Assembly: GCA_026387895.1 (NCBI GenBank)
Contig: JAPLKT010000146.1
Coordinates: 43,694-92,652, forward strand
Length of the DNA stretch: 48,959 nucleotides
Source of the DNA: Gemmatimonadota bacterium
GTDB lineage: Bacteria; Gemmatimonadota; Gemmatimonadetes; Gemmatimonadales; Gemmatimonadaceae
Direction: 5' to 3'
Shown: in pieces, positions 18,727 through 48,959 of the stretch
How positions within the stretch are numbered: the stretch's first letter is position 1
Layout of the letters: each line of letters begins with the position of its first letter
Program-made: the position numbers and the translations under genes
The notes under the pieces: model-generated
Seen by the model: only the letters and a program-made list of their open reading frames with translations
Told to the model about the DNA's origin: nothing
Databases searched by the model: none

Positions 18727-19878
18727 ATGAGAATGCTTGTGCTCGGCGCCGGGCTCCAAGGGTCAGCGTGCGCCTTCGACCTCCTGCAGCATCCTGACGT
18801 CACCGAAGTGCGCCTCGCGGACCGTGAGGTCAGCGCGCTCCCCGCCTTTCTGACACCCTACCGCACCGATCCACGATTGGTGTTGCTCCCACTCGATGCG
18901 CGCGACCACGCGGCCGCTCGGCAGGCGATGCATGGAGTTGCGGCGGTGATGTGTGCGCTGCCGTACTACTTCAATCTCGAGATGACCCGCGCCGCGCTTG
19001 AGTGCGGCGTACACTTCTGTGATCTCGGCGGCAATACCGGGATTGTGAATGAGCAGAAGGCGCTCGACGATCAGGCGAAGGCCAAGGGGGTCACGGTGAT
19101 CCCTGACTGCGGCCTCGCGCCGGGGATGGTGAACATCCTCGCGCAGCTCGGGATTTCGCGCTGTGATACTACCGAAAGCGTGAAGATCTTTGTTGGCGGC
19201 CTTCCGCAGGCGCCCGAAGGCCCACTCAAATACCAGATCGTGTATTCGCTCGAGGGAGTGCTCGACTACTACACGACGCTGAGCTGGATTGTGCGCGACG
19301 GCAAGCGCATGGAAGTGAAGGCGCTCAGTGAAGTGGAACCGGTGCACTTCGATACGCCCGTGGGCGAGCTCGAGGCATTTCATACCGCGGGCGGCCTGAG
19401 CACGATGGCGCAGCGCTATGAGGGCAAGATCCCGTCGATGGAGTACAAGACGCTCCGGTATCCTGGCCACGCCCACATTATGGAAGCGGTGCGCGAGCTA
19501 GGCTTGCTCGATCTCGCGCCGATAGATGTGAAGGGACAGCAGGTCAGTCCACGCGATGTGGCGGTCGCAACGATGGGCCCCAAGCTCAAGAAGCCCAAGG
19601 GGCGCGATCTGGTGGCACTTCGCGTGGTCGTACGCGGGGTGAAGAACGGAAAGCCCATTACGCACACGTGGGAGTTGGTCGACCGGTATGATGAAGCCAA
19701 GGGAATCACCGCGATGGAGCGCACGACCGGCTTCTCGTTGGCAATCACCGGGTTGCTGCAGGTTGCTGGCGTCGTGGCCCCTGCCGGCGTGCACACGCCA
19801 GACGAGGCAGTGCCCGGCGAGCGGTACATTGCGGAACTCGCGAAGCGGGGTATCCTCATCAAGGAGTTGGTCGCATGA
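18727..19878 (+). CDS. saccharopine dehydrogenase / lysine dehydrogenase-like oxidoreductase
   Basis: 383 residues. N-terminal NAD(P)-binding domain with GAGLQG at residues 7-12, then the family's LPYYFNLEMTRAALECGVHFCDLGGNT and PDCGLAPGMVNILAQ, and a C-terminal domain typical of the saccharopine dehydrogenase family, including lysine 6-dehydrogenases. The substrate is probably an amino acid such as lysine or a lysine-derived intermediate, but this cannot be decided from the sequence. The ATGA at its end starts the next gene, an exported alpha/beta hydrolase, so the two are translationally coupled even though they act in different compartments. Confidence 0.85.
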   Translation: MRMLVLGAGLQGSACAFDLLQHPDVTEVRLADREVSALPAFLTPYRTDPRLVLLPLDARDHAAARQAMHGVAAVMCALPYYFNLEMTRAALECGVHFCDLGGNTGIVNEQKALDDQAKAKGVTVIPDCGLAPGMVNILAQLGISRCDTTESVKIFVGGLPQAPEGPLKYQIVYSLEGVLDYYTTLSWIVRDGKRMEVKALSEVEPVHFDTPVGELEAFHTAGGLSTMAQRYEGKIPSMEYKTLRYPGHAHIMEAVRELGLLDLAPIDVKGQQVSPRDVAVATMGPKLKKPKGRDLVALRVVVRGVKNGKPITHTWELVDRYDEAKGITAMERTTGFSLAITGLLQVAGVVAPAGVHTPDEAVPGERYIAELAKRGILIKELVA

Positions 19879-20798
19879 CGCGTATCGCAACGCGTATCGC
19901 AACGCGTATCGCAACGATTACCCTGGCGCTGACAGCTGGCGTTTCCGCCGCATTGGCGCAGGGTGTTCCAGTCAAGCACACCGTGCAGTCGGACGGCCAC
20001 CCCATGGCGCTGTGGGAGAAGCGTGCCGCGAAGCCCACGCGTGCGATTGTATTGCTGCACGGACGCACCTGGAGTTCGCTTCCCGATTTTGATCTGCAGG
20101 TCCCGGGAGAACACCGATCGCTGATGGATGCCCTCGTGGCCAAAGGGTACGCCGTCTACGCCCTCGACCTGCGCGGCTATGGTGGCACCCCGCGCGACGC
20201 CTCAGGGTGGGTGAACCCGAATCGCTCGGCGGCCGATCTCGCGGCCGCGGTCGAATGGGTCACCAAGAACAGCGGTGTCACCGGCAAGCCCGCACTGTTT
20301 GGATGGTCGCTTGGCTCAACCGTGGCCCACCTGATGGCGCAGCAGCATCCCGAGCTGATTTCATCGCTCGTGCTCTTCGGCTACTGGAAAGATCCCGACT
20401 CGCCGAGCGTCACCGGCCCCGACACGCTTGTCCCCACGCGCGCCGCGACTACGGCGAAAGCCGCGGCGTCAGATTTTATCACGCCGACGATCAGTGCTCG
20501 CGCGATTGACCTGTATGTGAAGGCCGCGCTCGCTGCGGATCCGGTCCGGAGCGACTGGCGGCGGATGGAAGAGTTCAACGCCCTTTCGCCAGCCAAGCTT
20601 ACCGTCCCGACCTTGCTGATCACCGGCGAGCGCGACCCGATCGCCCCTGAGGCATTACAGCGCAAGTTCTTTGACCGGCTCACGGTCAAGGACAAGCAGT
20701 GGGTGACGATCAAGCAGGGCGATCATGCCGCGCTGCTCGAGGATATGCAGCCCGAGTTCGTGCGGGTGATGACGACGTTTATCGAGCGGAAGCGGTAA
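19875..20798 (+). CDS. exported alpha/beta hydrolase
   Basis: 307 residues from ATG 19875 (ATGA overlap). The N-terminus is unusual: Thr-Arg-Ile-Ala is repeated three times, encoded by three exact 12-base units, before a hydrophobic stretch and cleavage-like ALAQG. The hydrolase core has the nucleophile elbow GWSLGS with S145, an acid in TGERDPIAPEA near residue 253 and the histidine in QGDHAALL (H284), a complete triad. A lid region is likely between about 185 and 225. Lysophospholipase/esterase-like activity is possible; the substrate is unknown. It converges with dacB, 63 bases away, and no terminator-like hairpin is obvious there. Confidence 0.87.
   Translation: MTRIATRIATRIATITLALTAGVSAALAQGVPVKHTVQSDGHPMALWEKRAAKPTRAIVLLHGRTWSSLPDFDLQVPGEHRSLMDALVAKGYAVYALDLRGYGGTPRDASGWVNPNRSAADLAAAVEWVTKNSGVTGKPALFGWSLGSTVAHLMAQQHPELISSLVLFGYWKDPDSPSVTGPDTLVPTRAATTAKAAASDFITPTISARAIDLYVKAALAADPVRSDWRRMEEFNALSPAKLTVPTLLITGERDPIAPEALQRKFFDRLTVKDKQWVTIKQGDHAALLEDMQPEFVRVMTTFIERKR
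19878..19913 (+). repeat. 12-base tandem repeat, 3 exact copies, in a signal peptide
   Basis: ACGCGTATCGCA at 19878, 19890 and 19902, then a diverged ACGATT. They encode the positively charged n-region of the alpha/beta hydrolase signal peptide, beginning right after the start codon. Confidence 0.93.
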
Positions 20799-26685: not shown

Positions 26686-28056
26686 TTACTTGAGCGTCAT
26701 CAGATAGGCGACGATGTCGGCGATCTGCCGGTCGTCGAGGCCTGCGGCGAGCTTTTTTCCAGACTGGGGGTCAAGCTCCCCAGTGCCCAACGTGGGCATA
26801 ATCGACCCCGGCTTCATCAGGCGGGAATTCTTGAGCCAGCGGGCCAGAATCTTGGCATCGCTCCTGTAAATGCCGCCGGCGATCGTATGGCGCGTGCCGA
26901 AGTGGGTCAGATTCGGCCCCGAGGCGGAGTTATCCGTGAGCCCCATCATCGTCATTTCGCCCTTCACGATATGGCAGGTAAGGCAGGGGGCCTTCCCCAA
27001 GTTCGCCATACTCGTGATCAGCTCACGGCCGGCGACAGCGTTGCCGTTCGGCAGGAGCGTGTCGTCGAACTTCACTTCGCGCTCGCCCGTGGGAAGCGGG
27101 GTGCTGGGAATCGTGTGCGCAGGAATCTTGCCGACCGGGAAGACATACCCGCTGTCGGCGGCCATGTTCACGGCAGTGTTCACGGCAGTGTTCACGGCAG
27201 TGTTCACGGCAGTGTTCACGGCAGTGTTCACGGCGGGTGCGGCCGCAACCTTGGCGTCGCGCTTCATGCCGGGCATGCCGGGCATGCTCGCGGCCATCAC
27301 CGGTGTTGCCGCAATCGGCGAGCCGAGGGCTCCGGTCTTCTGGTGATCCACCCACTTCCCAAAGTCCCCTTCGGACACGGTGTACACGTGGAAGTGCATG
27401 TTGGCATGCGACGAGCCACAGTACTCGGTGCAGAAGCCGTTGAACACCTGATCGGCGATATCAGCGTTCGGCGTGTACCAGAGGTAGTTGGTCTTGTTCG
27501 AGATGAGATCGCGCTTGCCGCCGAGGTTCGGCGTCCAGAAGGAGTGGAGCACATCCTTTGTCTTGAGCGCGAAGTTCACCGTGCGGCCGGCCGGGATATA
27601 GAGCTCATTGGCCGTGGTAACGCCGAGTTCTGGATAGCGGAACTCCCACCACCACTGGTGGCCGATGACCTCGACCTGGAGCGAGCCGGCCGCGGCCTTG
27701 GCCTGGGTCTTGAAGATCGTCTTGACCGTTGGGATCGCGATCATCACGAGGATGAGCGCAGGGATCGCGGTCCACGTGATCTCCAGCAGCGCGTGGCCGT
27801 GGACCTGCTTCGGCGCAGGACTGTTCGGACGCTTCCGGAACTTGAAGATCGTGACGAGGAGGAGCACCTCGACGAAGACGAACACAATGGTCCCGAGCAG
27901 CAACAGTCGGTTCCACAGCGCGTCGGTCGCGGTGTTTAGGTCGGTGAGATGCGTGAACGTGGTGTTGGGGTACTGATCTCCACACGCCGCCAGCGCCAGC
28001 GCAGCCACCGCAACAACCAAGGCGGCGGGTAGTCGGCGCAAATGCTTACCGGGCAT
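26686..28056 (-). CDS. coxB: cytochrome c oxidase subunit II with C-terminal cytochrome c domain
   Basis: 456 residues from ATG 28056, with AAAGGA a little upstream; the open frame to 28224 lacks similarity. Signal peptide with a lipobox (LALAACGD), so probably a lipoprotein. Two membrane helices follow, then the cupredoxin domain with HQWWWEF and the CuA site C209-x3-C213-x3-H217-x2-M220 (CTEYCGSSHANM). A linker (about 240-300) with 12-base repeats leads to a cytochrome c domain with CLTCH (C358, C361, H362) and a likely Met ligand in SIMPTLG. This is the caa3-type arrangement, in which subunit II carries its own cytochrome c electron donor. First gene of the operon. Confidence 0.95.
   Translation of the reverse strand: MPGKHLRRLPAALVVAVAALALAACGDQYPNTTFTHLTDLNTATDALWNRLLLLGTIVFVFVEVLLLVTIFKFRKRPNSPAPKQVHGHALLEITWTAIPALILVMIAIPTVKTIFKTQAKAAAGSLQVEVIGHQWWWEFRYPELGVTTANELYIPAGRTVNFALKTKDVLHSFWTPNLGGKRDLISNKTNYLWYTPNADIADQVFNGFCTEYCGSSHANMHFHVYTVSEGDFGKWVDHQKTGALGSPIAATPVMAASMPGMPGMKRDAKVAAAPAVNTAVNTAVNTAVNTAVNTAVNMAADSGYVFPVGKIPAHTIPSTPLPTGEREVKFDDTLLPNGNAVAGRELITSMANLGKAPCLTCHIVKGEMTMMGLTDNSASGPNLTHFGTRHTIAGGIYRSDAKILARWLKNSRLMKPGSIMPTLGTGELDPQSGKKLAAGLDDRQIADIVAYLMTLK
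27166..27237. repeat. 12-base tandem repeat, 5 exact copies plus a diverged sixth, in the coxB linker
   Basis: GTTCACGGCAGT at 27166, 27178, 27190, 27202 and 27214, then GTTCACGGCGGG at 27226. On the coding strand it encodes Thr-Ala-Val-Asn units, located between the CuA domain and the cytochrome c domain of subunit II. Confidence 0.95.
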
Positions 28057-47289: not shown

Positions 47290-47886
47290 TTACTGCCGGG
47301 CGACCAAGGCGTCCAAGTCGCTTGCCGCCCGCCGTAAAATGGCGACCGCTTCGTCGACCAGGGGGGAATCGGCGGTGCGATGCATGGTGAGGTGCACGTA
47401 ACTCCGGCCAAGGGTGGCCATCGCTTCGTGAGCGGGGCGCATCTGCTCCCCAAAGATCGACGCCCCGAGTTGCCCTAGGCGCTCCAAGACCTCGTCGACG
47501 GTGCTGCGGTTTTCCGCGAGGTACGCTCGCCCCGCGTCCGTGATAGCATAGACCTTCTTGCCGCTCTCCTCCGGCGCAACCGAGGCATAGCCCATGTCCT
47601 CGAGCAAGGTCAGCGTCGGGTACACAGTGCCCGGGCTCGGGGAGTAGCGGCCACCCGAGCGTTCCTCGAGCGCCTTGATGATCTCGTAGCCGTGGCGTGG
47701 CTTCTCGGCCAAGAGCTGCAGAATGACGAACTTGAGGTCACCCTGCTCGAACATTCGTCCGCCTCGCTGGCCTCCGCGGCGGGGTCCGAATCCGAACCAG
47801 AACGGCCCTGAACCGGCGTCCCCCTTCCAGTCCCATCCACGTCCCGCGCCTTGGCGCTCGCTGGGTCCACGCTCTCGATTCCACAT
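47290..47886 (-). CDS. PadR-family transcriptional regulator
   Basis: 198 residues from ATG 47886, supported by a strong Shine-Dalgarno (AAAGGAG, 8 bases from the ATG). Residues 1-44 are a Gly/Arg/Trp/Phe-rich extension; the winged helix starts at MFEQGDLKFVILQLLAEKPRHGYEIIKALEERSGGRYSPSPGTVYPTLTLLEDMGYA, the standard PadR DNA-binding domain, with the wing in KKVYAITDAGRAYL. The C-terminal helical part (about 130-198) mediates dimerisation. PadR proteins repress efflux or stress genes and often their own. A palindrome inside the putative promoter (47924-47935) fits self-repression. A PadR gene near an FtsX/MacB-type permease tail (right edge) is a common pairing. Confidence 0.93.
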   Translation of the reverse strand: MWNRERGPSERQGAGRGWDWKGDAGSGPFWFGFGPRRGGQRGGRMFEQGDLKFVILQLLAEKPRHGYEIIKALEERSGGRYSPSPGTVYPTLTLLEDMGYASVAPEESGKKVYAITDAGRAYLAENRSTVDEVLERLGQLGASIFGEQMRPAHEAMATLGRSYVHLTMHRTADSPLVDEAVAILRRAASDLDALVARQ

Positions 47887-48060
47887 GACAATTTCTCCTT
47901 TAAGACATATCGGACGTTATATCACGATATATCGTTCGTCAAGGTGGTGTCGGTGCCAGTGGCGGTCGCCTGAACGCGACAGGATATTCAAAATGTACGT
48001 AACCTTGGGCGCAGCCCCACGCACGCCCCACGCACGCAGCCTTAGGTCCCTAGCGCGCCA
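47887..48060. promoter_or_regulatory. divergent padR / tonB-like intergenic region with a perfect operator-like palindrome
   Basis: 174 bases. On the minus strand TTGACG (47942-47937) and TATAAC (47921-47916) form a promoter with a 15-base spacer; shifting the -10 to TAACGT would give 17. The perfect 12-base palindrome ACGATATATCGT (47924-47935) lies between the two boxes, the usual place for a repressor site, and an ATATC/GATAT-rich stretch extends to 47907. The likely binder is PadR itself. The part toward 48060 contains a repeated CACGCCC/CACGCAG run but no clear promoter for the tonB-like gene. Confidence 0.6.
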
Positions 48061-48801
48061 ATGTTCGAAGTCCTGCTCGAATCGCGCGGCATTCATGCGC
48101 CGCGTCCCGCCATGTCCACCGCCCTGAGCGTTGCGACGCATGCCGCGCTGCTCATGGCGTCGGTCCCGGGCGCGCATTTTCTCTTCGATCATGGCCAGTC
48201 ACCACGCGAGCTCAAGTTGCTCACCGAATCGGTGCGCTATCTCCTTCCGCCGGAGCGACAAGCGGCCGCCTATTCCGACCGCCTGCGTTTTGCCACGGCG
48301 TCCGGCGGTTCAACAGCCGCCGGCATCATCGAAGACCGTACGCGCACCGTCTCCGATAACGGACTTGTCGGCACGAGCGCCCCAGGACACAACACCGCGG
48401 ATGAGGCCAGCGAGGCACCAGCGGCGACTCCGTCGCGGTCCACCGAGGCGTTCACCGTGGTGGAAGTCGACAGCGCCGCTGTCCGCGACCCGGAGTCTGC
48501 CGCTCCGGACTATCCAAAGACGCTGCTCGCGCAGGGAATCGAAGGCTATGCCGCGATGCGTTTCGTCGTGGATTCCACTGGACACATCGAGATGAACACC
48601 GTCCATGTGGTCGACGCCACGCACAACGACTTTGTGCAGGCGGTGCGTGACGTCATGCCGCGGATGCACTTCCGTCCCGCGCGCATCGGGCAGACGGCGG
48701 TTCGCCAGTTGGCGGAGCAGCTGTTCAAGTTCGAGACGAAGGTGGCGCCGTCCACTGCTGCGTCGAGCAAGAAACCACGCGACGACGACCCCGCCTCGTA
48801 A
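48061..48801 (+). CDS. TonB C-terminal-domain protein (energy transducer-like)
   Basis: 246 residues from ATG 48061. The start MFEVLLESRGIHAP followed by a hydrophobic segment (ALSVATHAALLMASVPGAHFLF, about 21-42) is a common beginning of TonB-family proteins in this sort of genome and should anchor it in the inner membrane. A periplasmic linker (about 45-145) is Ser/Thr/Ala-rich rather than the Pro-Lys repeats of classical TonB. The TonB_C domain spans about 147-225 (PDYPKTLLAQGIEGYAAMRFVVDSTGHIEMNTVHVV...MHFRPARIGQTAVRQLAEQLFKFE). A charged tail ends the protein. No ExbB/ExbD or receptor gene is in the window, so its partner is unknown. Confidence 0.88.
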   Translation: MFEVLLESRGIHAPRPAMSTALSVATHAALLMASVPGAHFLFDHGQSPRELKLLTESVRYLLPPERQAAAYSDRLRFATASGGSTAAGIIEDRTRTVSDNGLVGTSAPGHNTADEASEAPAATPSRSTEAFTVVEVDSAAVRDPESAAPDYPKTLLAQGIEGYAAMRFVVDSTGHIEMNTVHVVDATHNDFVQAVRDVMPRMHFRPARIGQTAVRQLAEQLFKFETKVAPSTAASSKKPRDDDPAS

Positions 48802-48816
48802 CGATCTCTGCACAAG

Positions 48817-48857
48817 AAAAAGCGCCGCGGGAGATTCACTCTCCCACGGCGCTTTTT
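48817..48857. terminator. bidirectional terminator after the tonB-like gene
   Basis: AAAAAGCGCCG (48817-48827) pairs with CGGCGCTTTTT (48847-48857), then a C/A mismatch and GGGAG with CTCCC around a 7-base loop. T-runs flank it on both strands, so it can end the tonB-like transcript and also the minus-strand transcript entering from the right. Confidence 0.9.
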
Positions 48858-48870
48858 GATTGTCTGCCAG

Positions 48871-48959
48871 CGCAGCGCGCTCTACTCGTAGCGCAGCGCG
48901 CTCTACTCGTAGCGCAGCGCGCTCTACTCGTAGCGCAGCGCGCTCTACTCGTAGCGCAG
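48871..48959. repeat. 21-base tandem repeat, at least 4 exact copies, running off the right edge
   Basis: CGCAGCGCGCTCTACTCGTAG at 48871, 48892, 48913 and 48934, then 5 bases of a further copy at the window end. The copies are identical and without spacers. Read on the minus strand each unit can be parsed AGC GCG CTG CGC TAC GAG TAG, i.e. Ser-Ala-Leu-Arg-Tyr-Glu-stop. Confidence 0.95.
48945..48959 (-). CDS. possible last codons of an FtsX/MacB-type ABC permease gene (rest beyond window)
   Basis: Minus-strand reading from the edge gives Leu-Arg-Tyr-Glu-stop. FtsX/MacB-like permeases very often end in ALRYE or similar, and a gene entering from the right would end before the bidirectional terminator. 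Only four codons are visible and the array continues outside, so the true stop may lie further right. Confidence 0.3.
   Translation of the reverse strand: MRYE

What the first reader, a model, noticed from the sequence alone, without database searches (positions are those of the whole stretch)
48871..48959. Tandem amplification of a gene's last seven codons, including its stop
The 21-base unit reads Ser-Ala-Leu-Arg-Tyr-Glu-stop on the minus strand, the type of ending found in FtsX/MacB-like permeases. At least four exact copies lie downstream of the presumed gene, each with its own in-frame stop and ending shortly before the bidirectional terminator. Such a repeat keeps a valid C-terminus whatever the copy number: a 3'-end buffer, a recombination point between paralogous permease genes, or a recent slippage product.
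Basis: partly seen in the sequence, partly recalled or inferred. Interest (0 to 1): 0.55.

Follow-up and report, generated by a model that had tools for sequence, protein, structure and literature searches.

The report
Slippage repeat over a gene's end
A short stretch of DNA that spans the last codons and stop codon of a membrane-transporter gene has been copied head-to-tail at least four times in an uncultured bacterium, most likely by copying slippage at a harmless spot between two facing genes; it is an ordinary kind of repeat in an unusual position.

Summary
Window 48869-48959 is a perfect 21-bp tandem array: four full copies plus 7 bp, each with TAG on the minus strand. The window edge is the contig edge, so the copy number is a lower bound. 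The gene beyond the edge is very probably a MacB/FtsX-type permease. In the closest relative held (G015) it lies in exactly this convergent position and ends ...VALRYE-stop, in single copy. The genome's own copy is cut at residue 300 of 406 at the end of contig C110. None of 15 genus orthologues has the array, nor does any of 178 other family genomes under an exact degenerate pattern. G015 alone has a 6-bp direct repeat (GCGCTG) spaced 21 bp apart across the stop, the seed that slippage needs. The 21-mer is not found elsewhere in the assembly, so exchange between paralogues is unsupported. Two more stop-spanning arrays (14 bp; 14/16 bp) lie between convergent genes in this genome; at both ends G015 carries arrays of other unit lengths (11 and 12 bp). 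Best reading: a recent slippage minisatellite in a tolerant 3'-3' junction, with no effect on the protein. A new member of a known kind; only the recurrence at gene ends is mildly unusual.

The parts
48869..48959 (-). perfect 21-bp tandem array, four full units (48871-48891, 48892-48912, 48913-48933, 48934-48954) plus a partial unit; minus-strand reading SALRYE-stop; runs off the contig end
48945..48959 (-). LRYE-stop of the copy nearest the contig edge; the permease gene's own end is this copy or one beyond the edge
   Evidence: gene identity inferred
48817..48857 (.). shared bidirectional terminator-like hairpin, 18-bp stem and 5-nt loop, conserved in G015
   Evidence: not listed by the scan
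48061..48801 (+). convergent neighbour, protein with a TonB C-terminal domain; orthologue 80% identical in G015
47290..47886 (-). PadR-family regulator, next gene inward (context only)

Best explanation
A MacB/FtsX-type permease gene converges on the TonB-domain gene, and a hairpin terminator lies between them. The ancestral 3' end of the permease carried a short direct repeat (GCGCTG, or GCGCTGCGCT in this lineage) 21 bp apart on either side of the stop codon. Strand slippage between the two copies duplicated the 21 bp that hold the last codons and the stop. Once duplicated, the perfect repeat grew to at least four copies. Because the first in-frame stop always ends translation at the same residue, and the array sits between a stop and a terminator with no promoter to damage, copy number should be nearly neutral, so the array persists. 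Shown: the array, its absence in relatives, the seed repeat in the sister, conserved gene order. Inferred: that the unseen gene joins the array in frame, that slippage is the process, and that it is neutral.
For: G015 has the same convergent junction in single copy, GTGGCG-CTGCGCTACGAGTAG-AGCGCGCTGGCAG, with GCGCTG at 21-bp spacing; 1 of 15 orthologues shows a direct repeat of 6 bp or more at that spacing. The window's array ends in the partial unit CTGCGCT, the expected remnant of such a seed. The permease has MacB_PCD and FtsX domains. The own gene, 96% identical over residues 1-300, stops at the end of C110. TonB gene and permease are convergent neighbours in 13 of the 15 genus genomes with a close permease orthologue (coordinates). 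No other copy in 178 family genomes, and the 21-mer is unique in the genome. The process recurs: arrays spanning stop codons lie at an ALDH-like gene end (14/16-bp units) and a histidine-kinase-like gene end (14-bp) in the same genome, where G015 has 12-bp x4 and 11-bp x2. Of 20 other non-genic arrays in 1.66 Mb of four genus members, 10 lie in 3'-3' junctions that make up 23% of intergenic bases (p about 0.008, heuristic gene models).
Against: The last 106 codons of the gene and the gene-array joint are not assembled, so the frame is inferred. G015's seed is only 6 bp, and its 3' flank lacks the extra GCGCT seen in the window, so one more small change is needed in one lineage. In the sample used, this genome has more arrays than its relatives (30 loci without this one in 449 kb against 38 in 1.21 Mb), which plain neutrality does not explain. 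The convergent-junction excess is modest and rests on home-made gene calls.
Confidence: 0.8

Rival explanations
1. Assembly artefact: the contig edge falsely repeats a unit that occurs once in the genome.
For: The array sits at the very end of a contig, and 2 of 47 readable contig starts also begin in tandem repeats.
Against: A single copy cannot form a loop in the assembly graph: the repeat at 21-bp spacing is about 10 bp, and in simulation loops need at least 2 copies at k=21 and at least 8 at k=141. Two contig pairs overlap by exactly 141 bases, so the last k was probably 141.
Confidence: 0.05
2. An addition to the best explanation rather than its opposite: the sampled population is polymorphic, some cells have four copies and others more, and the contig stops where the versions diverge.
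For: At k=141 a fixed array of up to 7 copies is traversed and one of 8 or more leaves 141 periodic bases, but a mixture of 4 and more copies leaves 91 (94 if the gene-side codon is GCG). The contig has 91.
Against: A plain coverage drop can end a contig anywhere (chance of this phase about 1 in 21), and C110 also stops about 318 bases short without any repeat. The last k is inferred from two overlaps only.
Confidence: 0.3
3. The array is kept by selection, as a back-up series of stop codons or as an mRNA 3' structure.
For: Each unit keeps an in-frame stop; units hold the palindrome AGCGCGCT and can pair with each other.
Against: The array folds no better than dinucleotide shuffles (z 0.09). 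It is absent from all 15 orthologues. The other two stop-spanning arrays have unit lengths that do not keep frame. After one extra stop, more add little.
Confidence: 0.1
4. Recombination site between paralogous permease genes.
For: MacB-like relatives are numerous in the genus and many match to the last residue of the query.
Against: No further 21-mer in the genome assembly at up to 3 mismatches; no exact tandem in 178 other family genomes.
Confidence: 0.02

Closest known systems
Bacterial minisatellites / VNTR loci formed by replication slippage (recalled as a class)
   Same: short perfect head-to-tail units, flanking partial unit, absent in close relatives, seed direct repeat in the sister
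   Different: unit spans a gene's last codons and stop; copy-number variation among isolates not shown here
Tandem repeats of Borg elements (PMC9879509; passages and section 2.1.3 read)
   Same: perfect units, some of 20-21 nt, flanking partial repeats; [quoted passage not shown] rapid, independent origin
   Different: Borgs are archaeal extrachromosomal elements with A-rich units; here a GC-rich bacterial genome, and the unit holds the stop codon
Mycobacterial interspersed repetitive units (recalled; the one search found no paper)
   Same: recalled as tandem units at gene ends that carry overlapping stop and start codons
   Different: MIRUs are a dispersed family; this 21-mer is found once in the genome

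Membership tests
Minisatellite (tandem repeat, unit 9-100 bp) | head-to-tail copies of one unit beyond chance | tested here: met
VNTR | copy number varies between individuals of one species | not testable with these tools
   no reads or second genome of the species; contig end only hints at it
Slippage-born tandem repeat | seed direct repeat with the same spacing in a single-copy relative | tested here: met
   G015, GCGCTG at 21 bp
MacB/FtsX-type permease (gene at the array) | MacB_PCD and FtsX domains | tested here: inconclusive
   both met in the G015 orthologue; own gene seen only for residues 1-300 on another contig
Dispersed repeat family (MIRU- or REP-like) | many copies at different genome sites | tested here: not met
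   21-mer only at this site at up to 3 mismatches

The most novel reading that the evidence does not exclude
In this bacterial genus gene 3' ends, above all where two genes converge, are recurrent birthplaces of tandem arrays whose unit includes the stop codon. The same ends re-form arrays with different unit lengths in sister species (16/14 against 12 bp, 14 against 11 bp), which suggests a process tied to gene ends (for example slippage where convergent transcription or termination meets replication) rather than random minisatellites spared by selection.
Probability: 0.12. Interest if true: 0.55.

Novelty: new member of a known kind. Interest (0 to 1): 0.22.

Why it matters
It shows step by step how a minisatellite can arise over a stop codon without changing the protein: a seed repeat in the sister, then an array here. 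If arrays really recur at convergent gene ends, they would be a natural record of where slippage is frequent and tolerated, and such loci could serve as strain markers for an uncultured lineage. On its own this array has no demonstrated function.

Tried and rejected
Paralogue exchange: rejected by the unique 21-mer. Selected RNA structure: the array alone folds like its shuffles; the strong z of the longer piece includes the terminator. A wider family of stop-spanning LRYE arrays: a degenerate pattern over 179 family genomes found only this one. The genome-contig scan found one other stretch, a Bacteroidales record with an imperfect 21-bp array in AT-rich DNA, judged unrelated (that tool warns that the window's own genome may be left out). 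Contig-end cause: k of 141 inferred from two exact overlaps among 47 readable starts (13 of 60 read as N) plus two contig ends; this does not by itself explain 91 periodic bases. Orthologue-end script: 29 rows given, 15 matched the tail expression; 14 rows (paralogues, distant copies and three own paralogue loci) did not and were not counted. Survey of arrays: gene models are longest-ORF heuristics and the classes changed between versions (in one search window 19878-19916 was flagged STOP, but by sequence it looks like part of the signal peptide of the next gene; one search counts it as a same-direction junction). Literature: the searches listed no paper on stop-spanning arrays in bacteria beyond the Borg paper (listings and abstract starts seen only); the library lacks most subscription journals, so this is not a claim of absence.

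Full report
What is there. The minus strand of 48869-48959 is an exact 21-bp tandem repeat, four full units and 7 bases more, each unit reading SALRYE-stop. The run of 70 matches at offset 21 compares with a maximum of 15 in 40 surrogates. The window is G000:C38:43694-92652 and the contig is 92652 long, so the array runs off the assembly. The 21-mer occurs only here in the genome at up to 3 mismatches; a backward-read control gave one match.

Which gene ends in it. The neighbour on the other side of a hairpin terminator is a 246-aa protein with a TonB C-terminal domain. Its closest orthologue is in G015, 80% identical. There a 406-aa protein with MacB_PCD and FtsX domains converges on it and ends VYPARRAAGLDPIVALRYE-stop, with the same hairpin between. 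Coordinates put the two genes side by side and convergent in G015 and 12 more of the 15 genus genomes that have a close permease orthologue. G007 and G010 have the two on different contigs; G012 and G013 gave no full-length permease match above 55% identity. In the window's own genome the permease is on contig C110, 96% identical to G015 over residues 1-300, and breaks off at the contig end. About 318 bases and the joint to the array are therefore missing; C110's last 250 bases match nothing else in the assembly but a 75% identical stretch, the paralogue on C114. That the permease ends in this array is inferred, not read.

Where the array came from. All 15 orthologous gene ends that my expression matched have a single ALRYE-stop or ALRFE-stop (14 further rows did not match and were not counted). 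In G015 the end reads GTGGCGCTGCGCTACGAGTAGAGCGCGCTGGCAG: GCGCTG occurs before and after the stop, 21 bases apart. No other of the 15 has a direct repeat of at least 6 bases at spacing 21 among the up to three best listed. The window's array closes with CTGCGCT, so the seed in this lineage was probably GCGCTGCGCT; the window has an extra GCGCT relative to G015, a small change in one of the two lineages. An exact degenerate pattern for two such units 21 bases apart hit 1 of 179 family genomes, the window's own. These facts fit slippage between seed repeats and later growth.

Artefact or not. Two contig pairs overlap by exactly 141 bases, which points to a last k of 141. In simulations a single copy never makes a loop at any k tried, 21 to 141. 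At k=141 fixed arrays up to 7 copies are assembled through, arrays of 8 or more leave 141 periodic bases, and a mixture of four and more copies leaves 91 or 94. The contig has 91. This is a hint, not proof, of copy-number variation in the sampled population; a coverage gap is the plain alternative.

Not alone in this genome. In 449 kb of G000, arrays spanning or touching a gene's stop at a convergent junction also occur at L157:4371-4471 (G000:C30, last codons of an aldehyde-dehydrogenase-like gene ending RPQIG-stop, units of 14 and 16 bp) and L159:6448-6495 (G000:C103, histidine-kinase-like gene ending EISAS-stop, unit 14 bp); the gene names here are my reading of the translations, not a family search. 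At the first, G015 has about four 12-bp units of which three carry an in-frame TAG; at the second G015 has two 11-bp units; G006 and G008 lack the first. Unit lengths of 14 and 16 do not keep frame, so a protein-end buffer is not the common principle. Over four genus members (1.66 Mb) I counted 21 array loci in gene junctions: 11 convergent, 9 same-direction, 1 divergent, while convergent junctions hold 31567 of 137100 intergenic bases. Without the index array this is 10 of 20, p about 0.008. The excess is what one expects if promoter regions and coding frames reject such arrays and 3'-3' junctions tolerate them.

Function. The array RNA alone folds no better than shuffles (z 0.09). Translation stops at the first copy whatever the number. 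I find no sign of a role.

Compared with what is known. The Borg paper (PMC9879509; [quoted passage not shown] This array is the same kind of thing in a bacterial genome, with the stop codon inside the unit. Verdict: real, correctly read, most likely an ordinary recent slippage minisatellite; modest interest for the recurrence at gene ends.

Noticed in passing
L157:4371-4471 (G000:C30) and L159:6448-6495 (G000:C103): Two more tandem arrays that span or touch stop codons between convergent genes; sister G015 has arrays of different unit length (12 and 11 bp) at the same gene ends.
   Followed up: partly
27165-27234: Perfect 12-bp repeat, 5.8 copies, inside a minus-strand ORF that reads like cytochrome c oxidase subunit II with a C-terminal haem-binding motif CLTCH (recalled, no family search); it encodes (AVNT)n in the linker before that motif.
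   Followed up: no
47905-47940: AT-rich inverted repeat (ATATCGTGATATAACGT-like, on the minus strand) just upstream of the PadR gene, also present upstream of the same gene in G015 (L038:10235-10280); possibly the PadR operator.
   Followed up: no
L058 (G000:C114:12346-13544): A paralogous MacB-like permease matches in two adjacent pieces (residues 3-359 and 362-406), which suggests a frameshift or assembly error near its 3' end.
   Followed up: no
G000 contigs: 13 of 60 contig starts read contain N in their first 60 bases; two readable starts begin in tandem repeats (12 and 9 bp), so repeats may often break this assembly.
   Followed up: no
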